Shown: positions 35,035 through 62,989 of the stretch, in pieces | How positions within the stretch are numbered: the first letter of the stretch is position 1 | How the letters are laid out: each line of letters begins with the position of its first letter | From: Caldilineae bacterium | Lineage (GTDB): Bacteria; Chloroflexota; Anaerolineae; DUEN01 | Reading direction: 5' to 3' | Length of the DNA: 64,000 nucleotides | Assembly: GCA_011176545.1 (NCBI GenBank) | Contig: DUEN01000021.1 | Span: 1-64,000 of the forward strand | Made by a program: the position numbers and the translations under genes | Notes under the pieces: generated by a model | The model's database searches: none | Seen by the model: only the letters and a program-made list of their open reading frames with translations | Told to the model about the DNA's origin: nothing

Positions 35035-35063
35035 TTGACAGTAAAACAAATTTAAGCTAAAAT
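35035..35063 (+). promoter_or_regulatory. Strong promoter at the head of the cytochrome island
   Basis: TTGACA at 35035-35040, a 17-base spacer and TAAAAT at 35058-35063, in a locally AT-rich patch. The first gene downstream starts at 35391, so the leader would be about 320 bases. The boxes match those of the nuo promoter exactly. Confidence 0.7.
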
Positions 35064-35390
35064 ATCGCTGACTTCTATGCGTTGGATATCTCCTGGAGGC
35101 ACGTGGCGATCCAGTTCACTGTATTGTTGCATCGGACAGTATCTCCCAGAACGTGTCCGAGAAAGACCGACTGAGTCACCATTAGGCCTTAGAGAAACCG
35201 ATAGGAACACGATGTACCGTGCTTTGCCATCAATCGCCTCCGCTTCGAGCGGAGGGATCTTCAGTCAGGCTCACAGGTGAGCCGTTCCCTTAATCGGATT
35301 TTGTCCCTAGCCACACCTTTATCCATAATCGGCCGTTCCACAGAAGTTGTGGATCATAACTCAATCCTTATAAGAGGGGAGGTCATCATC

Positions 35391-36740
35391 ATGCCACACA
35401 TCTCATGGAGGGCAGCTGCGATTCTCTCGTTCATCGCCCTCATCACGTTAGGTTGTACGCAGCCGGTCCCCCTACTGATCACAACGCCTACTCCCCCCAC
35501 ACCGACACCGGTTCCACCGACCGCTACGCCTTCGGCGCCTGTCGCCACGTCACCTGGCGCCGATGACGCCTGTATGGAGTGTCACAGAGAGGTGACACCT
35601 TCCCTCGTAAGGGACTTCCAGCAGGGGAAGATGTACGAGGTGGGCATCCGTTGTAGCAATTGTCATGGCTCTGAACACACCAGTGCTGAGGATACTGCCA
35701 AGGCTCAGATCCCCACAGCCAAGACATGCGCGACCTGCCACCCGACTCAGGTGACACAGTTTGAAGCTGGTAAACATGCCCTCGCCTGGGTCGCCATGAA
35801 CGCCATGCCCACGACTCATATGCAGCCTATGGAGCTGATCCAGGGCAAGAAGGGCTGCGGTGGCTGTCATAAGATCGGGCTCAAGAGCGAAGAGGAGATT
35901 CAGGCGATGCAGGCGGCGGGAGAGACGTACGGCACGGCCTCGTGTGACTCCTGCCACACGCGACACGCCTTCTCCGTCGCCGAGGCGCGCCAGCCTGAAG
36001 CCTGCGCGACCTGCCACATGGGCTTTGATCACCCGCAATGGGAGATGTGGTCAACCTCTAAGCACGGCGTACGGTTCCTCCTGAAGCGCCAGGGAGTGCT
36101 TTCCCCAGAGGTCGCCGCGCCGGCCTGTCAGGATTGCCATATGCAGGATGGCGACCACGAGGTCCGGACGGCCTGGGGATTCCTGGCCGTGCGCCTGCCG
36201 CTGCCGGATGACCCGCAATGGGCAGATGATCGGGTGACGATCCTCAAGGCGCTGGGCGTGCTGGACCCCGAGGGTAATCCAACGGGCCGACTCGACGCGG
36301 TCAAGGCCGCGGACGTGGCGCGCCTGACGGAAGAAGACTGGCAGACAGAACGCGAGAAGATGCTCACGGCCTGTAGCCAATGTCACGCCCAAGCATATGC
36401 CGAGGCCGAATTGAAGAAGGCTGACGAGATGATCCGGGAGGCTGATCATCTGATGGCGGAGGCCATCCGGATCGTGGCCGGGCTCTACGAGGACGGGCTG
36501 TTGGAGAAGCCGGAGCACTTCTCGTACAACTACCCCGATCTGCTCGCCTTCTACGAAGTCAATCACCCCATCGAACAGAAGCTCTTCAAGATGTTCCTGG
36601 AATATCGGATGCGCACCTTCCAGGGCGCGTTCCACGCGAATCCGGATTACACCTTCTGGTACGGCTGGGCTGAAATGAAAGCGACACTGGCTGAGATCAA
36701 AGCCATGGCAGCGGAGTTGAGGGGAGGGGGCGCTCCCTGA
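35391..36740 (+). CDS. Octaheme cytochrome c lipoprotein, hydroxylamine-oxidoreductase-like
   Basis: Exported lipoprotein of 449 residues: a hydrophobic leader with lipobox ITLGC (lipidated Cys near 21), a PT-rich tether ([16 protein letters not shown]), then eight CxxCH heme sites (CMECH, CSNCH, CATCH, CGGCH, CDSCH, CATCH, CQDCH, CSQCH). The order and the segments GFDHPQWEMWSTSKHG and AWGFLAVRLPLPDD resemble the HAO-like multiheme family, and a helical C-terminal domain (FHANPDYTFWYGWAE) follows as in that family. Whether the P460-crosslinking tyrosine is present cannot be settled by eye, so oxidation or reduction of N-compounds, or pure electron transfer, all remain open. GGGGAGGT sits seven bases before ATG 35391; the frame upstream to 35277 is not signal-like. 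Confidence 0.85.
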   Translation: MPHISWRAAAILSFIALITLGCTQPVPLLITTPTPPTPTPVPPTATPSAPVATSPGADDACMECHREVTPSLVRDFQQGKMYEVGIRCSNCHGSEHTSAEDTAKAQIPTAKTCATCHPTQVTQFEAGKHALAWVAMNAMPTTHMQPMELIQGKKGCGGCHKIGLKSEEEIQAMQAAGETYGTASCDSCHTRHAFSVAEARQPEACATCHMGFDHPQWEMWSTSKHGVRFLLKRQGVLSPEVAAPACQDCHMQDGDHEVRTAWGFLAVRLPLPDDPQWADDRVTILKALGVLDPEGNPTGRLDAVKAADVARLTEEDWQTEREKMLTACSQCHAQAYAEAELKKADEMIREADHLMAEAIRIVAGLYEDGLLEKPEHFSYNYPDLLAFYEVNHPIEQKLFKMFLEYRMRTFQGAFHANPDYTFWYGWAEMKATLAEIKAMAAELRGGGAP

Positions 36741-36793
36741 CTAAGTAAGCGCCGACATGCTCCCCACGCTCTGATCTGTTCTCTATCGCCTGA

Positions 36794-36824
36794 GTAGGGG
36801 GCACGGTGACGCCGTGCCCCCTGC
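36794..36824. repeat. GTAGGGG-family palindrome between two cytochrome genes
   Basis: GTAGGGGGCACGG and CCGTGCCCCCTGC pair around a short centre. It is placed about 55 bases after the HAO-like gene and may terminate or separate its transcript. Confidence 0.65.
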
Positions 36825-36903
36825 GACTAGGCAATCCTCAGGGGGTACGCGGCCGATACGTTCCCGCTAGGTGAAGACACCCCAATGAGCAAAGGAGGAG
36901 GGG

Positions 36904-38934
36904 ATGAGGAAACGCAGGATATTGACCATCATATTGGGCCTGTTGCTGATCGGCATCCTCAGCATCGGATGCGCTCCCAAGGCGACGCCCACCCCAGTAC
37001 CACCCACGCCAACACCTGTTCCACCGACACCGACGCCGGTACCACCGACGCCGACGCCGGTGCCGCCGACACCTACACCCGTACCTCCTACGCCAACGCC
37101 TGTACCTCCTACACCGACGCCGGTCGCGGCGAAGCCCTTCACAGCGACGCTGGAGGTGTTGGCCATCAATCCCGCTCAGGGGATTACGCTTCCCATCGCT
37201 GATACTGAGGAGACGATGACGCTCTTCACGCCTGGGCTGAAGGTCGTACCGCCTGGCGTGCCTCAATATCTCCACGCGGGCGTGATCGGCCTGGCCGAAG
37301 GAGCCAGCATCGCATCCTACGAGTGGACACTGACGGCACCCGAAGGGTTGGCGGCCACGCTGGAAGAGGTAACCGCCGATGCCGAGAAGGGTATCCCAGA
37401 GGGCAGTGCCGTCTTCGTCCCGGATCAGGTGGGGACCTATGTGATCGGCGTGACGGTGACGGACGACGCCGGGAACGTGAGCACCCCGGCGGAGCTGACC
37501 ATGCAGGTGGCCACCTATGTGGGCGTAGGTGGTATGAGCGGAGAGTCGGCACCGCCGCCGCAGTGCCGCATGTGTCATGCTGATCAGGTCGCCTCCTGGG
37601 AAAAGACGGGACACGCCACATTCTTCCAGGTCAACCTGGATGAGAACCCCAGCGAGCATTATGGCCCTCAGTGCATCTCCTGCCACACCGTCGGCTACTA
37701 TCCCGCGGCCACGGCGGAGACCGGCGGCTTCGCGGATGTGGCCAAGAAGCTGGGATGGACCTTCCCCGAGGAGATCGGCGTCGAGGGGACCTATGATGCC
37801 CTACCCGCCGAATTGAAGAACCTGGCCAACATCCAGTGTGAGAACTGCCACGGGCCCGGGAGCGCTCATAGCGGCGACAAGGCCAAGATCGATCACAGCC
37901 TGAGCGCAGGCGTCTGCAACCAGTGCCATAACGACGGCCATTACCATGTCAAGGGCGAGCAACTGGCCAACTCCAAACACGCGCAGGCGGGCACGATCGG
38001 TCCTCCGAATGGGCGGGCGGCCTGTGCTCGGTGCCACTCACCGGGTGGGTTCGTGGACTTCATCAACGGCGTGCCCGAGGAGAAGCGCCGCGCCGAGGTG
38101 GGTGCCATCGAGTGCGCGACCTGCCACGATCCACACGGCAACGGCAACCCATGGCAGTTGCAGGTCGTGGATACAGTAAAAGAGGCCCCCATCGAGATCA
38201 CCGACGTCGGGCTCTCGGCCCTGTGTATGGAGTGCCACAACGGTCGTGTGACCGCGGAAGAGGTGGCCGCCGAGAAGCCGCACTTCCCGCACTACAGCAC
38301 GGCCGCGGAGGCCGTCATGGGCCAGGGTGGCTATGACTTCGGCGAGCAGATCCCGAACTCGCCACATGGCATGATCATCGGGACCGCAGCCGATCCAGAG
38401 AAGTTCGGCGGCTACAAGCCAGGGCCGTGCGTCGCATGCCACATGGAAGAAACGCCGGGTGGCAACCGCAATACAGAAGAGGCACTCCAGACGCCTGGTC
38501 ACAATTTGGTCGGCGCCCACAGCTTCAACATGGTCAGCCCCGACGGCACCTTCGAGCAGGTGACCGTCTGCCAGACCTGCCACGCCGGCATCGAGACCTT
38601 CAACTTCCCGGCCAAAGCCGATTATGACGGCGATGGCACCGTGGAAGGCGTGCAGGATGAGGTCAAGGGGCTGCTAGACCTGTTGAAGGAGGCCATCGTG
38701 GCCAGTGGTGTCCCCGCTCTGGATCATTATCCCTACTTCCAGTTGCCCGATGAAGCCACGGAGGAGCAAAAGGCGGCCATCTACAACTATCGCTTCGTCA
38801 TCGGCCCTGTGCCCGAGGGCGAAGGGCGAGCATCCGCAATCCACAACTTCAAGCGCTCCGTGGCGCTGTTACAGCTCTCCTACCGCAAGCTGACGGGACA
38901 GGATGTACCCAACGCGACCCTCATCATCAAGTAG
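36904..38934 (+). CDS. Nonaheme cytochrome c lipoprotein with PT linker and Ig-like domain
   Basis: Exported lipoprotein of 676 residues. Lipobox SIGC (Cys23) is followed by about seven PTPTPVP units (27-78), an Ig/PKD-like beta domain (about 80-205; [27 protein letters not shown]), then nine CxxCH sites (CRMCH, CISCH, CENCH, CNQCH, CARCH, CATCH, CMECH, CVACH, CQTCH). A helical C-terminal region follows. The design puts a heme module on a long flexible stalk above the membrane, suited to surface electron transfer. Named family not recognised. GGAGG is five bases before the ATG. Confidence 0.85.
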
Positions 38935-38980
38935 CGGCTGAAGGTATCAAAGCCCGCCGGCGGACCAAACGGTGGGACGA

Positions 38981-39018
38981 GGTCAGGAGGCATGGGGGAT
39001 CTCCCCCGCCTCCTGACC
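38981..39018 (+). terminator. Long hairpin after the nonaheme gene
   Basis: GGTCAGGAGGC (38981-38991) pairs exactly with GCCTCCTGACC (39008-39018), with an inner GGGGG/CCCCC stem. It lies about 45 bases after the stop. There is no U-tract, so it may be a terminator helped by a factor or an mRNA 3' protector. The remaining gap up to 39261 has a further small hairpin (39076-39092) and no gene. Confidence 0.5.
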
Positions 39019-39261
39019 TATGAACGCAGCGCATTCCTTCACATGAGGCCCTGAACCTGAGGCCTTGAACCTCCTGTCGGCTTCCAGCCGACTTCCATGG
39101 TTTAGCCTGCAATTTATCCGCGGGCGAAATGGCAGAGAGAAAAACTGTCCCGACAGCTATTAGAGGATGGCTCGCACGGCATGGATAGGGGCCCACCCCG
39201 CGCGGATAGCAGCAACTTTGCCAAGGGAGGTTTCTGCCCACGCAGGAGAGGAGGTGGGATT

Positions 39262-39756
39262 GTGCAGCAACCGGAGCAGCGGGGATCCCGGGAGGAGTCG
39301 GCAGGAATTGGGCGTCGCGGGTTCGTACGTTACCTCCTGGGTTTCTCCTTTATCAGCACCATCGTCGGCGTGTTGACCCCGATCATCGGCTACCTATGGC
39401 CTCCGGCTCGCCCGAGTGGCACCCAGGGCGGCCGGACCCTGGTGGGCACGGTGGAGGACTTCCCGCCAGGTTGGGGCAAGATCATCCCTGTGAACAACAA
39501 GCCGGTGATCGTGGTGAACACGTCACAAGGCATCCGCGTCTTCTCCGCCATCTGCACGCACTTGGGGTGTATCGTGCTGGAAAAGGAGCCCAGCTTATCG
39601 TATATCAAATGCCCCTGCCACGATGGACGATTCAATCCCATCAACGGGGAGGTGATCGCTGGCCCGCCACCGCGCCCACTGCCCGCATATGAGTTTAGCA
39701 TTGAGGAAGGCAAGATCTATGTAGGCGAGCCACTGAGCCCGCTGTACGGTGGATAA
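39262..39756 (+). CDS. Rieske iron-sulfur protein of a quinol-oxidising bc-type complex
   Basis: A 164-residue membrane-anchored Rieske protein. The N-terminus has twin arginines (GRRGFVRYLLGFS) then a transmembrane helix (about 24-46), consistent with Tat export. The cluster boxes CTHLGC (98-103) and CPCHDGRF (117-124) supply the two Cys and two His ligands plus the disulfide cysteines. The start is GTG 39262, seven bases after GGAGG; no suitable ATG exists close by. The cytochrome b pair follows, so it feeds electrons from quinol to a high-potential acceptor. Confidence 0.93.
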   Translation: MQQPEQRGSREESAGIGRRGFVRYLLGFSFISTIVGVLTPIIGYLWPPARPSGTQGGRTLVGTVEDFPPGWGKIIPVNNKPVIVVNTSQGIRVFSAICTHLGCIVLEKEPSLSYIKCPCHDGRFNPINGEVIAGPPPRPLPAYEFSIEEGKIYVGEPLSPLYGG

Positions 39757-39861
39757 GCGAGCAGCCATGGTGACGGTCCCGTGCTCACCCGACCGGACCA
39801 CCGCGCTCGCGGATAGGTGCTCATGCGCAAGATCTCGTGGTGACTGTCCTGGAGGTGCCTG

Positions 39862-40617
39862 ATGCAGGAGAGGGCTCCCTTCTACAGTGTATGGGCCCTT
39901 CGGGCCTGGCATTGGCTGGACAAGCGTTATGCACTGCAGCGCCTCTTTCACGCGCTGGTGGACGTACCCATCCCGCGTACGGCGCGGACGCTCTATTTAG
40001 GTGGCATTACCCTTTTCCTCTTCTTCGTCCAGGCAGTCACCGGCATTCTGCTCACCCTCTACTATCGCCCTACGCCCGAAGAAGCTTATGACAGCATCCT
40101 GTTCATCATGAACGATGTCCGATTCGGTTGGCTGATCCGCAGCATCCATGCCTGGGGCGCCAACCTGATGATCCTCTTCTGCATTCTTCACATGCTTCGT
40201 GTCTTCTTTCAAGGGGCCTACAAGGCTCCACGTGAGATGACCTGGGTGGTGGGGATGCTGCTATTGATCATCACACTGGGCTTCGGCTTCACGGGATACC
40301 TTCTCCCGTGGGATCAACGTGCCTTCTGGGCCACCACGGTCGGGACGGAGATCGCAGGAGCGATTCCAGTGGTGGGAAGATTCGCGATGGAGTTCTTGCG
40401 AGGTGGCCCGGAGATCTCCGCATTGACCTTGAGCCGGTTCTTCGGGACCCATGTACTGGCATTGCCCGTCACCCTGGCTGCCCTCATCCTGGTCCACCTG
40501 GTCATGATTCACCAACAGGGCCTGTCTGACCCTACCGAGCCAGCATGGCCTGCGAGTGATCCACCGAAAGAGGTAGTCACCAGTGACTCACAGCGGGAGG
40601 ATGTCGGTGAGCACTGA
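39862..40617 (+). CDS. Cytochrome b6-type N-terminal subunit
   Basis: Diheme b subunit with four helices (251 residues). Heme ligands are H96, H110, H197 and H212. The second pair is 15 apart, the spacing of cytochrome b6 rather than bc1-type cytochrome b. The conserved GYLLPWDQ loop of the quinol site is present. A C-terminal hydrophilic tail follows. GGAGGTGCCTG precedes the ATG. Its stop overlaps the next frame, so the split N- and C-terminal subunits are co-translated. Confidence 0.93.
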   Translation: MQERAPFYSVWALRAWHWLDKRYALQRLFHALVDVPIPRTARTLYLGGITLFLFFVQAVTGILLTLYYRPTPEEAYDSILFIMNDVRFGWLIRSIHAWGANLMILFCILHMLRVFFQGAYKAPREMTWVVGMLLLIITLGFGFTGYLLPWDQRAFWATTVGTEIAGAIPVVGRFAMEFLRGGPEISALTLSRFFGTHVLALPVTLAALILVHLVMIHQQGLSDPTEPAWPASDPPKEVVTSDSQREDVGEH

Positions 40618-41020
40618 GAAACACCAGCCAGAAGATCAGGGAACGAGAGGTCGATCGCAACTGCCGTTTTTCCCAAACTACTTGCTGGACGAGGTGATCG
40701 CCTGGTATGTCATGCTGGCCGTCATCATCGTGCTGGCCTCTCTGTTCCCGGCTGGATTGGAAGAGCGGGCAGATCCCTTTAAGACGCCTCCCCACATCAA
40801 GCCGGAGTGGTATTTCCTGGCCCTCTATCAGGGGCTGAAGCTCGTCCCGCGCGTTATCGGCGTGCTCATGCCGGTGGTAGGCATCCTGGTATTGTTTCTC
40901 CTGCCCTTCATCGATCGGAACCCATACAAGACATGGCGGCGCCGCCCGATCGCCATCGGCCTGAGTCTCGTCATCCTGGCGGCCGTGGTCGTCTTAACCA
41001 TCTGGGGCTGGATGAGTTAG
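40607..41020 (+). CDS. Cytochrome b C-terminal subunit (subunit IV-like)
   Basis: Completes the quinol-oxidation site, 137 residues with three helices. The PEWYF motif of the Qo site is intact (HIKPEWYFLALYQGLKLVP). GTG 40607 lies six bases after GGAGG; ATG 40601 abuts the site, so GTG is preferred. It overlaps the end of the cytochrome b6 gene. No petA/c1-like gene follows; a 13-heme cytochrome takes that place. Confidence 0.9.
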   Translation: MSTEKHQPEDQGTRGRSQLPFFPNYLLDEVIAWYVMLAVIIVLASLFPAGLEERADPFKTPPHIKPEWYFLALYQGLKLVPRVIGVLMPVVGILVLFLLPFIDRNPYKTWRRRPIAIGLSLVILAAVVVLTIWGWMS

Positions 41021-41035
41021 CAAGGAAGGGGAGAA

Positions 41036-42709
41036 ATGGTGGTTCAAAGACGTACCCTCCTTGTCATGGTCAGGCGAGGGGGTTGGCTCTTGGCCTTCGT
41101 GTTCCTGTCACTCGCCATCGCTGGCGACGTGTATGCACAGCCTCCTATTCCCACGATTCCGCATTCGCTGGAAGGCCGAGCCGCCTGTCTCGCTTGTCAT
41201 GAGGCGGGCGTAGGCGGAGCCCCGGTGATTCCTGCCAACCACACGGGTCGCACCAACGAGATGTGCACTACCTGTCACGTGGCCGCCAGCGAAGCGCCGC
41301 CTCAGCCACCTCTCATCCCTCATACGCTGGTCGGGCGCTCTGACTGTCTATTCTGTCACGAAAAGGGGGTCGGTGGAGCGACGGTGATCCCATCTGATCA
41401 TGCGGGGCGCACGAGCGAGACGTGTCGGAATTGCCATCAGCCTGGCGCCCCCATAGAGGCGCCTCCCACACCTGCGGGGCCGCCGACGCCAACTCCCGTC
41501 CCCATCCCGACGCCCATCGTACACCCTGTGAGACGTGGGCAAAATACCTGTGCGACGTGCCATCGGACGCTCGACGAGAAGCAGGCGCGTATCGTAGATG
41601 AGTGGGAGAAGAGCATTCACGCGGCTCGCAATGTTAGCTGTGCGGATTGCCATGGCGGCGATCCGGGAGCTGAGGGGATCAATGAGTCTATGGCTCCTGC
41701 CGCAGGCTATATCGGCGTGCCGGATCGAGTGAAAGTCCCGGGGCTGTGCGCGTCTTGCCACGCCGACCCGGTACGGATGCGCCAGTATGATCTGCCAACG
41801 GATCAATTCGCCAAGTATCAGGAGAGCATCCACGGACGCGCTCTGTATGAAAATGGCGATCCCAACGTGGCGACCTGCGTTGACTGTCACGGCTCTCACA
41901 AGGTCCCTGAGGTGAACGACCCCAGCGCCGACGTATACCCCATCAACGTGCCCAAGTTATGTGCTCGCTGTCACGCCGACGAGCAACTGATGGCCCCCTA
42001 TGCGATCGCCACGAATCAGTACGATCTGTACCGGAAGAGTGTCCATGGCATCGCGTTGCTGGAACGTCAAGACCTGAGGGCTCCCAGTTGTGCGACGTGC
42101 CATGGCACGCACGGCGCAGCGCCACCGGGATTTGCCGAGGTGGCCAATGTCTGCGGTAGCTGCCATTCCGCCACTCAGGACTATTATGCACGGGGGGCAC
42201 ATGCCCAGGCCGGCGATGCTGGGCCCAAATGCGTCACGTGCCATGGACGCTATGACGTCACCAAGCCCGATGAGAGCCTCTTCGTGGGAACGGAGGAGCG
42301 ACATTGCGGAAATTGCCATCCTCCAGACTCGCCCATTGGAAAAGAGGTGGCCCAGATCAGAGAGGCCATCCTTGAGGCGGCCGCGACCCTGGCAAAGGCT
42401 GAAGAGCTAGTCTCCCAGGCCGCCAGCCGTGGCATGATCGTGGCTTATGAGGAGACGAAGTTATCGGAAGCCCGAACCGGGCTGATCTCTGCTCGAGCTG
42501 CCCAGCATCAGGTCGCGCTGGATGTGGTGACGAAGCTCACCGAGGCCAGCGTAGCCGCCAGTCAAGAGGTGATGGAAGCGGCCGAACAGAAGTTGCGGGA
42601 AAGTGTGTTCCGTCGTCAGGCGATGGTAGTCGCCGTAGTAGCCATCTCTATAACCGTCGGCGCCCTGTATAGCATCAAACGAGAACTGGATCGGCGACTT
42701 GAGCCATAG
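41036..42709 (+). CDS. Tridecaheme membrane-anchored cytochrome c
   Basis: A 557-residue exported cytochrome with a signal/anchor (about 10-35, ending VYAQPP). Two diheme modules of the form IPH-GR-CxxCH-DH-GR-CxxCH come first (40-140), then a PT linker. Nine more CxxCH sites follow (13 in all) in repeated units with Y-x-x-S-[IV]-HG spacers, then a helical stretch (about 440-525) and a C-terminal transmembrane helix. Directly after the Rieske/cytochrome b genes, it is the likely electron acceptor of that complex. No enzymatic motif recognised. Confidence 0.87.
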   Translation: MVVQRRTLLVMVRRGGWLLAFVFLSLAIAGDVYAQPPIPTIPHSLEGRAACLACHEAGVGGAPVIPANHTGRTNEMCTTCHVAASEAPPQPPLIPHTLVGRSDCLFCHEKGVGGATVIPSDHAGRTSETCRNCHQPGAPIEAPPTPAGPPTPTPVPIPTPIVHPVRRGQNTCATCHRTLDEKQARIVDEWEKSIHAARNVSCADCHGGDPGAEGINESMAPAAGYIGVPDRVKVPGLCASCHADPVRMRQYDLPTDQFAKYQESIHGRALYENGDPNVATCVDCHGSHKVPEVNDPSADVYPINVPKLCARCHADEQLMAPYAIATNQYDLYRKSVHGIALLERQDLRAPSCATCHGTHGAAPPGFAEVANVCGSCHSATQDYYARGAHAQAGDAGPKCVTCHGRYDVTKPDESLFVGTEERHCGNCHPPDSPIGKEVAQIREAILEAAATLAKAEELVSQAASRGMIVAYEETKLSEARTGLISARAAQHQVALDVVTKLTEASVAASQEVMEAAEQKLRESVFRRQAMVVAVVAISITVGALYSIKRELDRRLEP

Positions 42710-43062
42710 GAGCCTAGCGATGGTAGGAGCCACTGACCCTAAATGGATGATTTGGTGTTATCTGGGAAGTTGTGGCATGATTAAAGGGAAGGGAACCTCG
42801 GATTGTCCAATTTTGTTTCCAATTCGCCATCGCTTTAGAGCACCTCATGTAATGGTCAACCCATGGCGGCTTATGCCGCGCGGCAGGTCCCCACCGGGGT
42901 CTGCTGGCCATGGCAGGCGTTGCCGTGGCGAGAGTAGGAGGTGGTCTTCGACCAGACACGGCCAACGCTGGAAAGGGGGTGAGTCATTGCGCTGAAGAAG
43001 CTCTCTGCTTATGACGCTCTATCTTTCCCATCATAGCCATTCCTCAATAGTAAGGAGGGAAT
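42710..43062. other. Intergenic gap before the collagen-linker cytochrome
   Basis: About 350 bases with no convincing frame. A GC hairpin (GCAGGTCCCC...GGGGTCTGC, near 42880-42905) lies in the middle, and no consensus promoter stands out. The short frames here do not resemble known proteins. Confidence 0.5.
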
Positions 43063-44295
43063 ATGCCGACCTTTAAACGCATCCGCAGAGCGCTGATCGT
43101 AGTAGGTGTGCTGGTGCTGGCATTGGTGCTGGCGGCCTGTGCCGCTCAGGCGGGGCCACCGGGGCCGCAAGGACCACCTGGCCCACAAGGACCGCCAGGA
43201 CCGGCTGGTCCTCCCGGACCCGAGGGACCACAGGGACCGCCCGGTCCTCCTGGGCCAGCGGGCGCCGAGTATGTGGGGGCGGAAACGTGCGGCTCGTGCC
43301 ATCAGGAGATCTACGAGGTCTTCATGAAGTCCGGGCACGCCTGGAAGCTCAACCCGGTCGTGGATGGCCAGCCGCCCGAGTACCCGTTCACCGAGGTGCC
43401 CAACCCGCCGGAGGGCTACACCTGGGATGATATCTCCTACGTCATCGGCGGCTATAACTGGAAAGCCCGCTTCATCGATAAGAACGGCTACATCATCACC
43501 GGCCCTGATGAGAACGCGAAGACGCAATATAACTTCGCCAATCCCATCGTGGGCAAGGAGGCCGGGTGGGTCGCCTATCATCCTGGGGAAGAGAAGCCCT
43601 ACAACTGCGGTACCTGCCATACCACCGGGTACAAGCCGGAGGGCCATCAGGACGACATGCCTGGCATCGTCGGCACCTGGGCGGAGCCCGGCATCAAGTG
43701 TGAGCGGTGCCATGGTCCGGGTAGCTTACACGTGGCCAACCCGTATGGCGTGCGCATGGTGGTCGATCGGGACTCCGAGCTCTGTGGCGAGTGCCACCTG
43801 CGCGGCGATCCGACCCAGGTCGACGCCAAGGGCGGGTTCATCAAGCATCATGAGCAGTATGAGGAGCAACTGCAGAGCAAGCACGTCGCCCTGGATTGTG
43901 TGACGTGCCATGACCCGCACGCTGGCGTCGTCCAGCTGCGCCAGGCGGGTGAGCCGACGACGCGGCTGCAGTGCGAGAACTGCCACTTCGAGGAGGCGAG
44001 GAACCAGAGCGAGGTCCACAAAGCCGTGGGTGTGCAGTGTATCGACTGCCATATGCCGCGCATCGTCAAGAGCGCGTGGGGCGACCCGGAGAAGTACACC
44101 GGCGACATCCGCTCCCACTTGATGGCCATCGATCCGGAGCAGGAGGGCCAGTTCACAGAGGATGGCAAGCTCGCTCTCTCGCAGATCTCGTTAGACTTCG
44201 CTTGTCGGCACTGCCACAGAGAAGGTGGCAAGGCCACGCCGAAGACGGACGATCAACTGCGAGAGCGAGCCACGGACTACCACGCGCGACCATAG
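43063..44295 (+). CDS. Octaheme cytochrome c lipoprotein with a collagen-like linker
   Basis: Exported lipoprotein of 410 residues. Lipobox LAAC (Cys26) is followed by twelve Gly-Pro-X triplets (about 31-66), a collagen-like rod where sister proteins carry PT-rich tethers. Eight CxxCH sites follow (CGSCH, CGTCH, CERCH, CGECH, CVTCH, CENCH, CIDCH, CRHCH). A non-heme insert (about 85-170; [18 protein letters not shown]) separates hemes 1 and 2, as in cytochrome c554/NrfA-like multiheme folds. Followed by a strong terminator. A rigid or trimeric stalk is inferred from the repeat alone. Confidence 0.85.
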
Positions 44296-44317
44296 TCTTA
44301 TCCTCCCGAGAAAGCAA

Positions 44318-44361
44318 CGGGAAGGCCTCCCTCGAAGTGAGGGAGGCCTTCCTTATGTCCT
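44318..44361 (+). terminator. Intrinsic terminator after the collagen-linker cytochrome
   Basis: GGAAGGCCTCCCTC (44318-44331) and GAGGGAGGCCTTCC (44337-44350) form a perfect 14-bp stem with a five-base loop, followed by TTATGTCCTTTT. Confidence 0.8.
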
Positions 44362-44454
44362 TTTCTGGAACTTAAGGGCGCCCTTGCGTGACAGACGTTC
44401 TCAACCACCTTAGTGGCTCCATACTACACCTCATGCTTTGCATGATGAGCGTCA

Positions 44455-44483
44455 TTGGTGCATAATTACTCAAATGATATATT
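44455..44483 (+). promoter_or_regulatory. Candidate promoter for the second half of the cytochrome island
   Basis: TTGGTG at 44455-44460, 17 bases, then TATATT at 44478-44483, in an AT-rich patch just after a terminator. The -35 is weak (three of six). It would give a 50-base leader before the nonaheme gene at 44541. Confidence 0.5.
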
Positions 44484-44540
44484 GAGCTTACGATCCCACA
44501 GTTCGTTCAACCTGTCGCATGCTGGAGGAGATGCGAGAGC

Positions 44541-45647
44541 ATGGATACACGGCTGCCACGAAGCAAGTGGGCACTGATGTTGCTCACGGCTTTATCAGTG
44601 CTGCTCATTCTCACGATCGATGCCGGAGCGAGCTCCACGGGGCAGCAGGGCGATGAGAACATCGTGTGCTTGGGTTGCCATGCCAACCCAGAGCTCAAGA
44701 TGCAGCTCCCCAGTGGCGAGGAGCTCTCCCTCTACGTCGATCCGGACGCGTTCAACGCCTCGGTTCACGGCCAACTGGGCCAAAAGTGCACGGCCTGCCA
44801 TGATGGCATCTCCGGCTATCCCCATCCCCCCCTGTTCGCCGTGGACCGCCGAGATCTCTCCCTGGGGCTGTATACGAGTTGTCGCCGGTGCCACGAGAAG
44901 CAATATCGGGAGGGGCTAGATAGCGTCCACGCCCGATTGTTAGCTGGCGGGGATCGACGGGCGCCCATATGTACCGACTGCCACGGGTACCATGATGTGG
45001 CACCGCCCGACGAGCCGCGGTCCCGGATCACCCACACATGCTCCAAATGCCATTCGACGATCTACAACGAATACAAAGAGAGCGTTCACGGGGCAGCCCT
45101 GCTGGAGGAGAGCAATCCCGACGTGCCCACGTGCATCGATTGTCACGGGGCACATCATATGGAGGATCCACGCACGGCCAGATTCCGACTCAAATCACCC
45201 TGGATATGCGCTGGATGTCACACCGACCCAGTCCGTATAGGCAAATATGGCATCTCCACTGATGTCTTGGATACCTATGTGGCTGACTTCCACGGCACGA
45301 CGGTGGAGTTATTCGCCAAGCAGTCTCCTGATCAGCCGACGAACAAGGCCGTATGTTACGATTGTCATGGCATCCACAACATCAAGAAGGTGACGGATCC
45401 AGAGGCGACGGTCGTGAAGGAGAACCTCCTGCGCACATGTCGCCAGTGTCATCCGGATGCCACGGCTAACTTCCCTACGGCATGGGTGAAGCACTACCGA
45501 GCCAGCCCACAGCAGTACCCGCTGGTCTATTACGTCCAGCTCTTCTATCGGATCCTGATCCCGACCCTCATCGGCTTCTTCGTAGTCTACATCCTGCTGG
45601 ATATCGCACGTCGAACGGTAGAGCGCTTCGCTCAGAGGGGAGCGTAG
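44541..45647 (+). CDS. Nonaheme membrane-anchored cytochrome c
   Basis: A 368-residue cytochrome with a signal peptide (about 8-30) and nine CxxCH sites (CLGCH, CTACH, CRRCH, CTDCH, CSKCH, CIDCH, CAGCH, CYDCH, CRQCH). Repeats of the form Y-x-E-S-VHG-AL-NP-VPTC-DCHG also occur in the 13-heme protein, so the two are related. A C-terminal membrane helix follows (about 330-352; LIGFFVVYILLDIARR). It abuts the b-type cytochrome by one base, so the two should form a complex that accepts electrons from quinol. Confidence 0.87.
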   Translation: MDTRLPRSKWALMLLTALSVLLILTIDAGASSTGQQGDENIVCLGCHANPELKMQLPSGEELSLYVDPDAFNASVHGQLGQKCTACHDGISGYPHPPLFAVDRRDLSLGLYTSCRRCHEKQYREGLDSVHARLLAGGDRRAPICTDCHGYHDVAPPDEPRSRITHTCSKCHSTIYNEYKESVHGAALLEESNPDVPTCIDCHGAHHMEDPRTARFRLKSPWICAGCHTDPVRIGKYGISTDVLDTYVADFHGTTVELFAKQSPDQPTNKAVCYDCHGIHNIKKVTDPEATVVKENLLRTCRQCHPDATANFPTAWVKHYRASPQQYPLVYYVQLFYRILIPTLIGFFVVYILLDIARRTVERFAQRGA

Positions 45648-45648
45648 G

Positions 45649-47004
45649 ATGGAGTACAAGACACAAAAGACTTACCAACGGTTTACCCTCTCGCAGCGTA
45701 TCGAGCATTGGGTGCTCATGCTATCATTTACCATCCTGGCCGTGACGGGCCTTCCGCAGAAATATGTGGGCCATGAGTGGGCCGAGACGCTGATCGGCTG
45801 GATGGGGGGTATCGAGACCGTCCGAGAGATCCATCACATCGCCGCGGTCATCCTCCTTTTGGAGAGCATCTACCACGTCGTGGCTGCGGGATACCGGCTC
45901 TTCGTCCTGAGGGTAAGCCCCTCTATCCTCCCCAGCCCCAAGGATCTCATCGACCTGATCGACGATCTCCGTTACAACCTCGGCCTGACGAAGCGGCGGC
46001 CCCGAATGGACCGCTATACGTACCAGGAGAAACTCGAGTACTGGGCGGTGGTCTGGGGTACCGTCATTATGGCGATCACGGGGTTCATGATGTGGAACCC
46101 CATCACGACGACGCGCTTCCTGCCCGGGGAATTCGTCCTCGCGGCCAAAGCTGCGCACAGCGGTGAGGCGCTGCTGGCCGTCTTAGCTATCATCACGTGG
46201 CATGTCTACCATGTGCATATTAAACACTTCAATAAAAGCATCTTCACGGGTAAACTCACAGAGGAGGAGATGCGCCATGAGCATCCCCTGGAGCTGGAGC
46301 GCATCGAGGCAGGCCAGGTGCCTCAGCCCCCGGATGAGAAAACGCGACGCCAACGCGAGAGGATCTACCTGCCGATCTCCGTTCTCATATCTGGCCTGCT
46401 CCTCCTGGGCTTGTATGAGTTCGTCACCTACGAGCAGACGGCCATCACCACGTTGCCCCGGCGCGCTGTGGTGGCCTACGCCCCCGCCACACCGACGCCC
46501 ACACCGACGCCTGCTCCCTCTCCCACTCCAAAGGCGGTCCCTACTACAGCCCAGCCTGCGGGCTCACAAGCCGCGGTCGCCGTACCGCACACGATAGCCG
46601 ACCACGAGCACTGTCTGCTCTGTCATGGCGTGGGTGCGATAAAGCCGTTCCCCTCGGACCACACCGGCCGGGGCAATGAGACGTGTCTCCTCTGCCACCC
46701 GTTGGCGGCCGCTGAGGAAACGCTGCCGACGGCCGAGCCAGCGACTGCTCCCAGCTTCTCGACCATGGTGCTCCCTATCTTCCAGGCCAAGTGCGCCGTC
46801 TGCCATGGGGAGATGGCCGGGCTTAACCTCAGCAGCTACGAGGATATCATGCGAGGCAGTGACAATGGACCGGTCATTGTGCCTGGGCAGCCGGAGGCCA
46901 GCCCACTGATCCAGAAGATGTCAGGCACGCATCCGGCCCGGTTGAGCGAAGAGGAACTTGCCATCGTGCGAGCCTGGATCGCGGCGGGCGCACCTAATAA
47001 CTGA
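45649..47004 (+). CDS. Membrane b-type cytochrome fused to a c-type heme tail
   Basis: The N-terminal half (1-215) is a four-helix diheme b module of the FdnI/PhsC/HydC type, with histidines in QRIEHWVLM, REIHHIAAV, SIYHVVAAG and TWHVYHVH. A further helix (about 243-262) leads to a PT linker, then a diheme PH-DHTGR module (two CLLCH) and a last CAVCH in a planctomycete-type cytochrome c domain. The b module likely oxidises menaquinol; the c tail relays electrons outward. The idea resembles Geobacter CbcL, which also joins a b module to multiheme c, though the order differs. Tight coupling to the preceding nonaheme gene (1 base). Confidence 0.85.
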   Translation: MEYKTQKTYQRFTLSQRIEHWVLMLSFTILAVTGLPQKYVGHEWAETLIGWMGGIETVREIHHIAAVILLLESIYHVVAAGYRLFVLRVSPSILPSPKDLIDLIDDLRYNLGLTKRRPRMDRYTYQEKLEYWAVVWGTVIMAITGFMMWNPITTTRFLPGEFVLAAKAAHSGEALLAVLAIITWHVYHVHIKHFNKSIFTGKLTEEEMRHEHPLELERIEAGQVPQPPDEKTRRQRERIYLPISVLISGLLLLGLYEFVTYEQTAITTLPRRAVVAYAPATPTPTPTPAPSPTPKAVPTTAQPAGSQAAVAVPHTIADHEHCLLCHGVGAIKPFPSDHTGRGNETCLLCHPLAAAEETLPTAEPATAPSFSTMVLPIFQAKCAVCHGEMAGLNLSSYEDIMRGSDNGPVIVPGQPEASPLIQKMSGTHPARLSEEELAIVRAWIAAGAPNN

Positions 47005-47185
47005 TCGCTGGGATTCAAGGTGATGGCCGAAGCTTGACCTTCTATACTTCCTGAGGCATCTATCTAATAGGAGGGACGGGTAGCGGAGGACACCGTCTTC
47101 AGCCATCTAAAGGACTACGTTAGGGGTCACCATCTGCATTCTCGGAGGATAAGCCTCAAGTCTCATCAACAAGGAGGGGAAAAGG

Positions 47186-49561
47186 TTGAACACGATCCTA
47201 ACCACGCTGAGCTCCAATCGTACATATTTCTTTGTATTCGGTACCATCATCGTCATCGTGGTCGGATCCCTGCTTTTCGCTGGAGGTGTCACCGTCTGGG
47301 AATACACCAACAGCTCTGAGTTCTGCGGGACGACCTGCCACACGATGCCGCCGGAATATACCGCCTACAAGATCTCACCCCATGCCCGCGTCCCATGTGT
47401 GGATTGTCACCTGGGCATGGAAAGCGTGCTCACCATTGTGCCGCGGAAGGTGAAGGAGGTCCGGCATGTCCTCTTCGCTCTGACTCAGAACTATGAGACA
47501 CCTATCTACGTCAAAAGCCTGCGTCCCGCGCGATACACCTGCGAGAAGTGCCATAACCCCGAAAAGTTCTCCGACGATAGCCTGCGCGTGATCCGACACT
47601 ACAGCACGGACGAGAAGAATAGCGAGACTCGAATCTATCTCGTGATGAAAACCGGCGGCGGGACCCGGCGCGAAGGACTGGGCAAGGGCATCCACTGGCA
47701 TATCGAGAACGAGGTCTGGTATATCGCCACCGACGAGCATAAGCAGAACATCCCTTATGTACGTCAGGTGGATGAGAACGGGCAGGTTATCGAGTATTTC
47801 GACGTGACAGCCGCTCTGCCGTCCGATTTCGTAGCCAGGAACAGTGATAAACTGCGTCGCATGGACTGCATTGATTGTCACAATCGCATCTCTCACACGT
47901 TCCGCTCACCCGAGCGGGCCATGGATTGGGTCCTTTCCCGTCGGCTGATCGACAGGAATATCCCCTACATCAAGGCAAAAGGGGTTGAGGTGCTCAGTGC
48001 GACGTATGAGAGTCACGACGAAGCAGCCGCGGCCATTGAGCGGCTTGAGGAATGGTATCGTGCCAATTATCCAGAGTGGTATCAGGTCCCCGATAATCAG
48101 GCGAAACTGAAAAAGGCTATCGAGGAGCTAAAGCGCATCTACTCGGAAACGGTCTTCCCGGAAATGGACGTAGGATGGGAGACCCATCCCGATAATATCG
48201 GACATCTCGAGTTCCCCGGATGTTTCCGGTGTCATGATGGGAAACACCTCAGCCCCCAGGAACAAGCTATCCGACTGGAGTGTAACATCTGTCACTCCAT
48301 CCCGGAGGTCGTAGGCCCTGGTGATCCTGCACCGGTCATCTCTGTGGAGAAGCCCAACGAGCCTGATTCGCACAAGGATACCCAATGGCTGGCCCGACAC
48401 CGATTCGAGTTCGATCAGACTTGCACGGCGTGCCATGATGTGGCCAATCCTGGAGGAGCCGATAACTCGAGTTTCTGCTCGAACAGTGCCTGCCATGGTG
48501 TCGAATGGAGATATGCGGGGCTGGATGCCCCGGCAATCGCCCAGAAGTTGAAGCCGGCGAAGGAGAAGGCGCCTATCGGGGTACCCGCACAGGTACCACA
48601 TCCGGTGGGGCCACGCACGGACTGCGAGATCTGCCACGGGCTTCAGAAGGTACATCCTTATCCAGAGAATCACACGCAATTCGATGCAACCCAGTGCACG
48701 GGTTGCCATCCGGTTATCCAGGAGGCCCTCATCGCACCCTCGGGGAGCCCAACGCCCGAGGCAGTTACTGGGCCCGCTCCCATTCCACACCCTCTGGAAG
48801 GCCGGGAGGATTGCCTAATCTGCCACGCGGTGGGTAGCGGTGTCAAACCGGCACCGCCAGATCACGAGGGGCGCACATCAGATCTATGCCAAGCGTGTCA
48901 CAAACCAGCGGCGACCCCGACGCCTGCGAGCGGTCGCCCCACCAACACACCGACACCCACACCGGCGCAGCCCGTGAGCACGCCGACGCCCCAGGCAACC
49001 GTTGGGCCCGCCTCTATCCCCCATCCCCTGGAAGGTCGGGAGGACTGCCTGATCTGTCACGCCGTGGATAGCGCCGTGAAGCCAGCACCGCCAGATCACG
49101 AGGGGCGCACGTCAGATCTATGCCAAGTGTGTCACAAACCAGCGGCGACCCCGACGCCTGCGAGCGGTCGCCCCACCAACACACCGACACCCACACCGGC
49201 GCAGCCCGTGAGCACGCCGACACCTCAGGCAACCGTTGGGCCCGCCTCTATCCCCCATCCCCTGGAAGGTCGGGAGGACTGCCTGATCTGTCACGCCGTG
49301 GATAGCGCCGTGAAGCCAGCGCCCCCCGATCATGAGGGACGAACATCGGATCTGTGCCAGGCATGCCATGCAGCCGCCCCGACGTCCCAGGCTGGCGAGG
49401 AGGAAGTGGCCTCGCCACCAAGTATGCCACAGCACCCTCTAGAGGTTGGGGATGACTGTCTGCTTTGTCACGCGGTGGATAGTCAGCTCAAGCCCGCGCC
49501 TGAGGATCACGAGGGACGCTCCGTGGAGTCGTGTCAGGTGTGCCACAAACCCGAATCGTGA
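47186..49561 (+). CDS. NapC/NirT-like 18-heme cytochrome c
   Basis: A 791-residue protein with an N-terminal membrane anchor (about 14-38) and a NapC/NrfH-like head: its first site is C47-GTT-C51-H, a CX3CH motif. Canonical CxxCH sites follow, one CX4CH (C431 to H437) and, from about residue 470, five diheme PH-GR-CLICH-DHEGR-CQACH modules joined by PT linkers. Total: sixteen CxxCH plus the two variant sites. The start is TTG 47186, eight bases after AGGAGG. It could be a quinol dehydrogenase that delivers electrons along a repeating heme wire. Ends at a strong terminator. Confidence 0.85.
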   Translation: MNTILTTLSSNRTYFFVFGTIIVIVVGSLLFAGGVTVWEYTNSSEFCGTTCHTMPPEYTAYKISPHARVPCVDCHLGMESVLTIVPRKVKEVRHVLFALTQNYETPIYVKSLRPARYTCEKCHNPEKFSDDSLRVIRHYSTDEKNSETRIYLVMKTGGGTRREGLGKGIHWHIENEVWYIATDEHKQNIPYVRQVDENGQVIEYFDVTAALPSDFVARNSDKLRRMDCIDCHNRISHTFRSPERAMDWVLSRRLIDRNIPYIKAKGVEVLSATYESHDEAAAAIERLEEWYRANYPEWYQVPDNQAKLKKAIEELKRIYSETVFPEMDVGWETHPDNIGHLEFPGCFRCHDGKHLSPQEQAIRLECNICHSIPEVVGPGDPAPVISVEKPNEPDSHKDTQWLARHRFEFDQTCTACHDVANPGGADNSSFCSNSACHGVEWRYAGLDAPAIAQKLKPAKEKAPIGVPAQVPHPVGPRTDCEICHGLQKVHPYPENHTQFDATQCTGCHPVIQEALIAPSGSPTPEAVTGPAPIPHPLEGREDCLICHAVGSGVKPAPPDHEGRTSDLCQACHKPAATPTPASGRPTNTPTPTPAQPVSTPTPQATVGPASIPHPLEGREDCLICHAVDSAVKPAPPDHEGRTSDLCQVCHKPAATPTPASGRPTNTPTPTPAQPVSTPTPQATVGPASIPHPLEGREDCLICHAVDSAVKPAPPDHEGRTSDLCQACHAAAPTSQAGEEEVASPPSMPQHPLEVGDDCLLCHAVDSQLKPAPEDHEGRSVESCQVCHKPES
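48782..49370 (+). repeat. 234-bp tandem repeats encoding diheme modules
   Basis: Units start at 48782, 49016 and 49250, exactly 234 bp (78 codons) apart; the third is partial. Units one and two are nearly identical at the DNA level, including silent positions and the PT linker, indicating recent duplication. A more diverged module follows near 49425. Confidence 0.9.
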
Positions 49562-49596
49562 GGAACAGCTCGGCAAGAAGAAAGTTCTCAGCGAGC

Positions 49597-49635
49597 AAAA
49601 AGGCCAGCGGAGAGAATTCCGCTGGCCTTTTCTTT
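49597..49635 (+). terminator. Intrinsic terminator of the cytochrome island
   Basis: AAAAGGCCAGCGGA (49598-49611) pairs with TCCGCTGGCCTTTT (49618-49631), followed by CTTTAA. It lies about 35 bases after the 18-heme gene. Confidence 0.82.
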
Positions 49636-49647
49636 AATCGAGAGAAG

Positions 49648-49675
49648 GTAGGGACGACGCATACGTCGTCCCTAC
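49648..49675. repeat. GTAGGGA-family palindrome between convergent genes
   Basis: GTAGGGACGACG and its exact complement CGTCGTCCCTAC around CATA. It sits between the cytochrome-island terminator and the end of the S8 protease gene, where it may terminate the latter. Confidence 0.7.
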
Positions 49676-49685
49676 TCTGTTTTCC

Positions 49686-58986: not shown

Positions 58987-59020
58987 ACATCAACTCCTGA
59001 TCATTGGGATATATTATTCG

Positions 59021-60895: not shown

Positions 60896-60901
60896 CCCTT
60901 T

Positions 60902-61017
60902 CGCTCATAATCGAAATAGGCAACATCCGCAAAGGCGTGTTTTGTAAGGGCGCACGGCCGTGCGCCCCTACAATTCGCCCATTCTGGTAGAGGCACGGCG
61001 CCGCCGTGCCTCTACCA
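60902..61017. mobile_element. Copy of the palindrome-bearing repeat element (partial)
   Basis: It begins CGCTCATAATCGAAATAGGC and stays similar to 2991-3110. It holds the palindromes 60944-60971 (GTAAGGGCGCACGG / CCGTGCGCCCCTAC) and 60985-61017 (TGGTAGAGGCACGG, five-base loop, CCGTGCCTCTACCA). The right terminal repeat is not recognisable. It lies between the TPR gene and tadC, on a shared transcript. Confidence 0.6.
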
Positions 61018-61056
61018 TAGGCGAGCATTCCGCTCTCAGCATATCCCGATGATGCG

Positions 61057-62022: not shown

Positions 62023-62026
62023 CCCC

Positions 62027-62980: not shown

Positions 62981-62989
62981 ATCCCCCAC

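What the first reader, a model, noticed from the sequence alone, without database searches (positions are those of the whole stretch)
35035..49635. A 14-kb respiratory island with seven multiheme cytochromes (68 heme-attachment motifs) in an apparent monoderm
By count of CxxCH-type sites: 8 (35391), 9 (36904), 13 (41036), 8 (43063), 9 (44541), 3 (45649) and 18 (47186). They are interleaved with a Rieske protein, a split cytochrome b and a membrane b-type cytochrome. No porin, MtrA/MtrB-like or secretin gene is present. Lipoprotein stalks plus C-terminal or N-terminal membrane anchors could carry electrons from quinol across a single membrane and cell wall. The sequence shows the parts; the conduit is inference.
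Basis: partly seen in the sequence, partly recalled or inferred. Interest (0 to 1): 0.9.

Follow-up and report, generated by a model that had tools for sequence, protein, structure and literature searches.

The report
Collagen-stalked cytochromes in respiratory gene island
A bacterium with apparently one membrane carries a cluster of heme proteins that probably moves respiratory electrons from its membrane outward, and one of these proteins seems to sit on a collagen-like rod, an arrangement also seen in many of its relatives.

Summary
In detail: seven multiheme cytochromes with 68 heme-attachment motifs (66 CxxCH, one Cx3CH, one Cx4CH), interleaved with Rieske and split cytochrome b genes.

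The island is modular. C5+C6 resemble a split CbcL (nine hemes plus a b561-type protein): neighbours in 80 and fused in three of 84 loci. C7 is ImcH/NapC-like. Rieske, cytochrome b and C3 form a bc-type block, absent at this place in the same-genus island.

C1, C2 and C4 are probable lipoprotein heads. C4 and C2 match best, among solved structures, OcwA and then OmhA, surface cytochromes of monoderm Fe(III) reducers. C1 is a HAO-family octaheme without the cross-linking Tyr, so probably a reductase.

Unexpected: C4 has a lipobox, 13 perfect Gly-X-Y triplets, then the octaheme domain. Of 37 homologs that reach the head start, 30 keep 8-21 uninterrupted triplets. It is the genome's only collagen match. 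Three paper searches showed me no such protein.

Export of quinol electrons to tethered reductases is likely; direction and acceptor are not shown. The lipoprotein stalks hold no heme motifs, so they tether heads rather than conduct.

The parts
35035..35063 (+). sigma-70-like promoter match upstream of C1 (11 of 12)
   Evidence: consensus match only (9 found in the region, 5.2 expected)
35391..36740 (+). C1: probable lipoprotein (TLGC), Pro/Thr-rich linker, HAO-family octaheme; catalytic Asp-His kept, cross-link Tyr replaced by Phe
36904..38934 (+). C2: lipobox-like start (SIGC, by eye; the script's pattern did not match), Pro/Thr-rich linker from a 21-bp tandem repeat, PKD-like domain (below Pfam cut-off, beta strands in the model), nonaheme domain related to OcwA
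39181..39756 (+). Rieske 2Fe-2S protein, one predicted TM helix
39862..40617 (+). cytochrome b, N-terminal part (b6-like)
40583..41020 (+). cytochrome b, C-terminal part (subunit IV-like)
41036..42709 (+). C3: 13-heme cytochrome with C-terminal TM helix, 15 bp after cytochrome b; found with Rieske/cytochrome b in five other loci
41153..41437 (+). two diheme modules at the N terminus of C3
43063..44295 (+). C4: lipoprotein (LAAC) with collagen-like stalk and octaheme head related to OcwA/OmhA
43153..43269 (+). collagen-like stalk of C4: 13 uninterrupted Gly-X-Y triplets (residues 31-69), Pro at X in 12
44319..44353 (+). 16-pair terminator-like hairpin that may split the island into two transcription units
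   Evidence: 12 terminator-like sites found, 9.0 expected; this is the longest stem
44541..45647 (+). C5: nonaheme cytochrome with C-terminal TM helix (CbcL-type periplasmic part)
45649..47004 (+). C6: b561/FdnI-type membrane cytochrome with one diheme module and a PSCyt1 heme at its C terminus
46579..46698 (+). diheme module in C6
47186..49561 (+). C7: NapC/NrfH/ImcH-type anchor (one hydrophobic helix, first motif Cx3CH) followed by a multiheme domain and diheme beads; 18 motifs
48590..49546 (+). five diheme modules of C7, partly on Pro/Thr-rich linkers; a 234-bp tandem repeat of 2.5 copies lies inside
49647..49676 (+). 13-pair terminator-like hairpin after C7

Best explanation
A respiratory electron-export island of a monoderm anaerobe. 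Menaquinol is oxidised at the cell membrane by up to three kinds of quinol dehydrogenase: the split CbcL-like pair C5/C6, the ImcH/NapC-like C7, and a Rieske/cytochrome b complex whose electrons pass to C3. Electrons then move through the diheme beads of C3, C6 and C7 to three lipid-tethered heads outside the membrane (C1, C2, C4), which reduce external acceptors. C4 is held on a collagen-like rod, which implies a trimer. Shown: gene content, heme motifs, family matches, conserved neighbourhoods, stalk periodicity. Inferred: the quinone type, electron direction, order of transfer, trimerisation, surface location and the acceptor (metal oxides, electrodes or other cells for C2/C4; nitrite, NO or hydroxylamine for C1).
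For: C5 is directly followed by C6 in 80 of 84 distinct loci; three of the other four are fusions and the fourth (L042) overlaps through an over-long ORF (loci were chosen by C5 or C6). C6 matches formate-dehydrogenase gamma/b561 and keeps H20, H62, H76, H170, H185 and H212 in at least 95% of 91 aligned sequences. C7 has one hydrophobic helix and then Cx3CH; 40 of 42 complete homologs have Cx3CH as first motif, a feature PMC6295460 (passages) gives for ImcH homologs. C4 and C2 profiles hit OcwA best in the PDB (9.9e-23 and 3.2e-13) and OmhA second. C4 co-occurs with C5: 33 of 37 C4 genomes have C5 against 112 of 298 overall, and C4 lies within 1.5 kb upstream of C5 on the same strand in 14. 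Cytochrome-assembly proteins are present (3 matches); no heme-copper oxidase and no NrfA was found.
Against: No acceptor, localisation or activity is known. C1 points to a soluble N-oxide substrate rather than a mineral. C4 aligns with OcwA mainly over the N-terminal c554-like part (query 60-252) and lacks a long C-terminal helix bundle. The C2 model failed over the hemes and the C4 model is weak (pLDDT 48 and 61). Neighbours differ: of 84 loci only 10 have C4, 8 have C2, 1 has C1 and 45 have C7 (many loci end at contig ends, so these are lower bounds), so only C5/C6 is constant. Four genomes have C4 but no C5 match. Family matches of C5-C7 to named quinol dehydrogenases are all below NCBIfam's cut-offs. 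The genome is 5.6% contaminated and incomplete.
Confidence: 0.6

Rival explanations
1. Soluble N-oxide (or similar oxyanion) respiration or detoxification: the island supplies electrons to C1, a reductive HAO-type nitrite/NO/hydroxylamine reductase, with C2 and C4 as further enzymes of the octaheme reductase superfamily. No mineral or electrode is involved.
For: C1's best PDB hit is 6h5l, recorded as 'Similar to hydroxylamine oxidoreductase'; the Asp267/His268 pair of the Nitrosomonas HAO chain is kept and the Tyr467 position is Phe (numbered by eye; roles of these residues recalled, role of the Tyr also). No NrfA in the genome. The C4 profile also hits the sulfite reductase MccA (1.9e-10). 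OcwA itself reduces nitrite slowly and reacts with hydroxylamine (PMC6703420, passages). C2 and C4 are more conserved between the window and some relatives than C5-C7 (C4 86% against 50-60% in L028), as expected of enzymes.
Against: C1 is rare: 3 of 298 class genomes at E <= 1e-30 and 1 of 84 island loci. Long lipid-tethered stalks are not needed for a soluble substrate. The closest solved relatives of C4 and C2 are surface Fe(III) reductases. The 86% for C4 in L028 could also come from gene transfer.
Confidence: 0.25
2. The same machinery runs inward: electrons from a partner cell or mineral enter through the heads and reduce quinone.
For: CbcL/MtrH/MtoC homologs occur in Fe(II) oxidisers as well as Fe(III) reducers (PMC6295460, passages). 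No heme-copper oxidase was found, which leaves several anaerobic lifestyles open.
Against: C7 is ImcH-like; the same paper reports ImcH homologs only in Fe(III) reducers and takes them as quinol oxidases only. A bc-type block and a reductive HAO favour outward flow.
Confidence: 0.1
3. The collagen-like stretch of C4 is a flexible low-complexity linker like the Pro/Thr linkers of C1 and C2, without a triple helix.
For: C1 and C2 have Pro/Thr-rich linkers in the same place; 7 of 37 homologs that reach the head start have no stalk.
Against: Gly falls at every third residue without a break in 8-21 triplets in 30 homologs although X/Y residues vary; 0 of 30000 residue shuffles of the stalks reach the observed runs.
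Confidence: 0.25

Closest known systems
CbcL of Geobacter sulfurreducens (inner-membrane quinol dehydrogenase for low-potential extracellular acceptors)
   Same: nine c-type hemes in the periplasmic part and a HydC/FdnI-like b-type membrane part (PMC6295460, PMC9129911, passages)
   Different: here two genes (C5, C6), with a diheme bead and a further heme added to C6; no direct sequence comparison with CbcL was possible; TM helices of C6 were not reliably counted (a simple hydropathy scan flagged two; CbcL has six); that survey lists 0 CbcL homologs in Chloroflexi
ImcH of Geobacter
   Same: NapC/NirT-type anchor with an atypical CX3CH beside the membrane helix; an ImcH homolog with one TM was already noted in Anaerolinea thermophila (PMC6295460, passages)
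   Different: C7 has one hydrophobic helix instead of three and 18 motifs (6-10 in that survey), the extra ones mostly as diheme beads
OcwA of Thermincola potens (6I5B) and OmhA of Carboxydothermus ferrireducens (6QVM)
   Same: best PDB relatives of C4 and C2; surface reductases of monoderm Fe(III) reducers (PMC6703420, PMC12203936, PMC7829351, passages)
   Different: C4 has eight hemes, a collagen-like stalk with lipid anchor and no long C-terminal helix bundle; OcwA has nine hemes and is a dimer
Reductive HAO-type octahemes (HAOr of anammox bacteria, Campylobacterota Hao)
   Same: octaheme family match, Asp-His kept, no cross-linking Tyr (PMC12758564, PMC8940962, passages)
   Different: C1 is a probable lipoprotein on a Pro/Thr-rich linker inside a quinol-dehydrogenase island
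PgcA of Geobacter
   Same: lipid attachment site and heme motifs separated by Pro/Thr-rich repeats, heme number varying between homologs (PMC5732950, passages)
   Different: single motifs between repeats, not diheme beads; secreted and processed; its authors report no unusual secondary structure by CD
Thermincola ImdcA-PdcA-CwcA-OcwA pathway
   Same: proposed quinol-to-surface route across one membrane and a wall by multiheme cytochromes (PMC7911101, passages)
   Different: wall crossing there is assigned to CwcA, modelled on OmcS; no search for an OmcS-like gene was made here, and stalks plus beads are the candidate

Membership tests
CbcL-type quinol dehydrogenase | nine CxxCH in the periplasmic part | tested here: met
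   C5 has 9; most C5 rows listed have 9
CbcL-type quinol dehydrogenase | HydC/FdnI-like b-type membrane domain | tested here: met
   C6: Ni_hydr_CYTB 6.1e-14, over the Pfam cut-off; formate-DH gamma 2.9e-14, below the NCBIfam equivalog cut-off
CbcL-type quinol dehydrogenase | both parts in one polypeptide | tested here: not met
   two genes 1 bp apart in the window; fused in L061, L084, L086. It may work like CbcL; it is not filed as CbcL
CbcL-type quinol dehydrogenase | sequence homology to Geobacter CbcL | not tested
ImcH family | NapC/NirT-like N terminus with CX3CH next to the TM helix | tested here: met
   Cytochrom_NNT 7.3e-12; helix 15-33, Cx3CH at residue 47; 40 of 42 homologs have Cx3CH first
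ImcH family | three N-terminal TM helices | tested here: not met
   one hydrophobic helix in C7; the survey admits one for two homologs, among them Anaerolinea thermophila
HAO-family octaheme | eight hemes and PF13447 match | tested here: met
   8 motifs, PF13447 2.8e-29
HAO-family octaheme | catalytic Asp267-His268 | tested here: met
   'GFDH' in C1 aligned to 'GVDH' (numbered by eye; catalytic role recalled)
Oxidative HAO | Tyr cross-linked to the catalytic heme | tested here: not met
   Phe (or Trp if the alignment shifts by one) at the Tyr467 position; lack of the Tyr marks reductive forms by PMC12758564 and PMC8940962 (passages)
OcwA/OmhA surface reductases | sequence similarity over the c554-like tetraheme part | tested here: met
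   C4 9.9e-23, C2 3.2e-13 as several short stretches
OcwA/OmhA surface reductases | long C-terminal three-helix bundle (OcwA) | tested here: not met
   C4 ends 25 residues after its last CxxCH (residues 381-385 of 410); the weak model shows only short helices there
OcwA/OmhA surface reductases | Fe(III)/electrode reduction at the cell surface | not testable with these tools
   needs cells or protein
Collagen-like proteins | uninterrupted Gly-X-Y run | tested here: met
   13 triplets; PF01391 28.0 bits against a cut-off of 27.2; 30 of 37 homologs have 8-21 triplets
Collagen-like proteins | triple helix and trimer | not testable with these tools
   needs protein
bc1/b6f complex | Rieske plus cytochrome b | tested here: met
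   Rieske 4.2e-13, Cytochrome_B 8.5e-57, Cytochrom_B_C 7e-20
bc1/b6f complex | cytochrome c1 or f subunit | tested here: not met
   none among the island proteins; the multiheme C3 follows by 15 bp and would be the partner (inference)
Porin-cytochrome conduit (MtrCAB type) | outer membrane and MtrB-like barrel | tested here: inconclusive
   no Omp85 or LptD in the genome and no barrel hit among the island proteins; the MtrB family itself was not searched. C3 and C5 have below-cut-off similarity to the DmsE decaheme family

The most novel reading that the evidence does not exclude
C4 defines a widespread family of trimeric octaheme cytochromes raised on a lipid-anchored collagen triple helix and fed by a CbcL-like quinol dehydrogenase: a monoderm way of placing a respiratory head some 7-18 nm above the membrane (8-21 triplets at about 0.86 nm each, recalled value) without an outer-membrane conduit.
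Probability: 0.5. Interest if true: 0.78.

Novelty: new variant of a known kind. Interest (0 to 1): 0.62.

Why it matters
How monoderm bacteria place respiratory cytochromes outside the membrane is known from few organisms. This island offers a testable architecture that recurs in its class (C5 in 112 of 298 sampled genomes at E <= 1e-60, C4 in 37 of 298 at E <= 1e-50), and two named isolates carry the C5-C6 pair (Thermanaerothrix daxensis GNS-1, Levilinea saccharolytica KIBI-1). A collagen-like stalk on a multiheme cytochrome would be a new building principle, and the variable diheme beads suggest how heme tails lengthen by module duplication.

Tried and rejected
Rejected or weakened: an MtrCAB-like porin conduit (no Omp85 or LptD; MtrB itself not searched). 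Rejected: heme-bearing lipoprotein stalks (no heme motif in the linkers of C1, C2 and C4). Rejected: C1 as a hydroxylamine-oxidising HAO (no Tyr).

Led nowhere or weakly: AlphaFold2 of C2 failed over the heme part (pLDDT 48), so no fold search was run on it. The C4 head model is weak (pLDDT 61); its fold search put OmhA (6qvm) and MccA first, but with TM-scores of 0.30-0.40 (query-normalised) and rmsd above 13 A, so I give it little weight. Whether one of the eight C4 hemes lacks a distal His stayed open: 6 invariant and 2 nearly invariant extra His in 30 sequences. The C5 profile's best PDB hit is only 3.6e-9, to 6r2q_A, recorded as 'Cystathionine beta-synthase' though multiheme (I recall 6R2Q as an MtrCAB complex), so C5 has no close solved relative. 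The first genome-wide heme-pair pattern used too short a spacing and found one site; a second spacing found 32 pairs, 26 of them in the island. No sequence of Geobacter CbcL or ImcH was at hand, so the likeness to these rests on architecture and text. Papers: for novelty I ran. 'collagen-like' with 'multiheme cytochrome' gave 0 papers; 'collagen' with 'multiheme' gave 9, and 'collagen' with 'c-type cytochrome' and 'extracellular electron transfer' 11; I read the collagen passages of two (both in both lists) and only the listing of the others. The library holds open-licence papers only.

For C4, ORFs under 40% identity or under 250 aligned residues were dropped; 43 remained, window included, 6 of which start inside the head. 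L049, L061, L084, L086, L088 and L095 bear labels of other phyla and L080 none; labels were not checked.
Full report
Observation. The seven ORFs hold 66 CxxCH, one Cx3CH and one Cx4CH, that is 68 sites, at the stated places; shuffled proteins give at most 2. Rieske, cytochrome b N and C parts and a b561-type domain are confirmed. The window is part of a 76-kb contig of a 4.43-Mb genome, 92.7% complete and 5.6% contaminated. The class is probably Anaerolineae, inferred from the titles of named relatives. Of 32 close heme-motif pairs found in the genome with one spacing pattern, 26 lie in this island and 6 on four other contigs, so it looks like the main multiheme locus of the genome.

Organisation. 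A good promoter match lies at 35035 and hairpins follow C4 (44319-44353, 16 pairs) and C7 (49647-49676, 13 pairs), so two transcription units are likely: C1-C2-Rieske-bN-bC-C3-C4 and C5-C6-C7. These are consensus matches; the region's totals (9 promoter-like, 12 terminator-like) are not far above shuffled ones (5.2 and 9.0). In the same-genus genome (L021) the order is C1-C2-C4-C5-C6-C7 and the Rieske/cytochrome b/C3 block is missing between C2 and C4; whether that genome has it elsewhere was not searched. The block thus looks like a separable module.

Quinol-side modules. C5 (nine hemes, C-terminal helix) and C6 (b561/FdnI-like) are neighbours in 80 of 84 distinct loci; three of the other four have them fused in one protein and the last (L042) overlaps through an over-long ORF. 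These loci were chosen by C5 or C6, so the number tests adjacency, not frequency. By frequency, C5 occurs in 112 of 298 sampled genomes of the class at E <= 1e-60, and 351 places in the species-level genome collection encode a relative, of which the best 80 were given; 73 of these 80 titles name Chloroflexota lineages or lower taxa that I know to belong there (some genus names by recall). Nine hemes plus an FdnI-like membrane part is the layout given for CbcL (PMC6295460 and PMC9129911, passages). C7 begins like NapC/NrfH/ImcH; a Cx3CH next to the helix is reported for ImcH homologs, including a one-helix form in Anaerolinea thermophila (PMC6295460, passages), and 40 of 42 complete C7 homologs have Cx3CH first. 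C7 is next to C6 in 36 of 84 loci and somewhere in 45. Rieske/cytochrome b genes with a C3-like partner recur in L045, L051, L068, L069 and L071, and in other loci (for example L070, L075, L091) the cytochrome b C-terminal part matches within a ~700-residue ORF with seven hemes, which supports direct transfer from a bc-type complex to multiheme proteins (inference).

Heme beads. A module of about 40 residues with two CxxCH and two more conserved His (consensus HPLxGRxxCLxCH...DHxGRxxxxCxxCH, by eye) occurs twice in C3, once in C6 and five times in C7. In 90 distinct C6 homologs its detected number ranges from 0 to 6 and C6 hemes from 0 to 12; in 42 C7 homologs from 0 to 5, with 7 to 19 hemes. 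Within C7 a 234-bp unit is repeated 2.5 times with 91% matches. Length variation of the heme tails in module steps is therefore shown; that they act as wires is inference.

Lipoprotein heads. C1 has a lipobox, a Pro/Thr-rich linker and an HAO-family octaheme domain; the residues aligned to Asp267/His268 of the Nitrosomonas enzyme are kept and the cross-link Tyr position is Phe (read by eye). A relative in G115 has His there and a C-terminal hydrophobic helix (read by eye). Absence of the Tyr is taken in PMC12758564 and PMC8940962 (passages) as the mark of reductive enzymes. C1 is rare: 3 of 298 genomes at E <= 1e-30. C2 and C4 are, among solved structures, closest to OcwA (6I5B) and then OmhA (6QVM): C4 9.9e-23 and 2.4e-12, C2 3.2e-13 and 4.7e-5. 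C4 also hits MccA (1.9e-10). The identity of both entries comes from PMC6703420 and PMC12203936 (passages). OcwA also reduces nitrite slowly and reacts with hydroxylamine, so surface reduction and N-oxide reduction need not exclude each other.

The collagen-like stalk. Between the lipobox Cys (residue 26) and the heme domain C4 has 13 uninterrupted Gly-X-Y triplets, 12 with Pro at X. It is the only Collagen (PF01391) match in the window's genome, and C4 is likewise the only match in G001 and G007; 12 of 41 genomes have any match, and most of the other matching proteins were not examined. Of 43 distinct C4 homologs, 37 reach the start of the head; 30 of these have 8-21 uninterrupted triplets and 7 have none. 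A lipobox pattern was found in 27 of the 30; one of the other three is cut by a contig end and two have a Cys in AAQC (read by eye). X/Y residues vary while Gly stays every third, and 0 of 30000 shuffles of the stalk residues reach the observed runs. This argues for selection on a triple helix and hence for a trimer (inference). C4 is present in 37 of 298 genomes; 33 of these 37 have C5 (expected 13.9; one-sided Fisher p = 5e-12, relatedness not corrected), and in 14 genomes C4 lies within 1.5 kb upstream of C5 on the same strand. No paper with this combination was seen in three searches of the open-licence library, within the limits told under Tried and rejected.

Envelope and physiology. No Omp85, LptD, heme-copper oxidase or NrfA match was found; three cytochrome-assembly matches were. 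Each absence rests on one family search with controls ringing, in an incomplete genome. bd-type oxidases and nitrate reductases were not searched. This fits an anaerobe with one membrane but does not prove it.

Mechanism and verdict. The most likely role is outward transfer of menaquinol electrons through C5/C6, C7 and the bc/C3 block, over diheme beads, to tethered heads; C1 probably handles an N-oxide, C2 and C4 more likely metal oxides, electrodes or other cells. Shown are parts, families, neighbourhoods and periodicity; direction, order, location and acceptor are inferred. I class it as a new variant of a known kind (monoderm multiheme respiration), with the collagen-stalked head as the most novel element.

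Noticed in passing
L024 4562-8290 (also L045, L054, L071): Proteins of about 1020-1250 residues with 28-34 heme motifs, and 22-heme proteins, upstream of C5 in several relatives; the L024 locus alone holds about 94 motifs in seven genes.
   Followed up: no
L061 5398-9396 and L084 5409-9503: Single polypeptide of 1333-1365 residues and 27 motifs: eight or seven diheme beads, then C5, then C6 with one or two more beads; both records are labelled Deltaproteobacteria.
   Followed up: partly
window 57634-62989 (-): T2SSE and two T2SSF genes downstream of the island, which look like a Tad-type pilus locus (the name Tad is my reading).
   Followed up: no
window 33383-34276 (-): Prolipoprotein diacylglyceryl transferase gene next to the island that encodes three probable lipoproteins; perhaps chance.
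   Followed up: no
L028 409-1650: C4 is 86% identical to the window's although C5-C7 of the same contig are 50-60%, which hints at strong constraint or recent transfer of C4 between families.
   Followed up: no
G037, G068, G113, G180, G253, G289: One in-frame stop is reported inside the C5 match in several genomes, all six of family f35; cause not examined.
   Followed up: no
G000:C189:20775-21218: Another locus with heme-motif pairs in the same genome, outside the window.
   Followed up: no
window 36983-37124: 21-bp tandem repeat of 6.8 copies that encodes the Pro/Thr-rich linker of C2.
   Followed up: no
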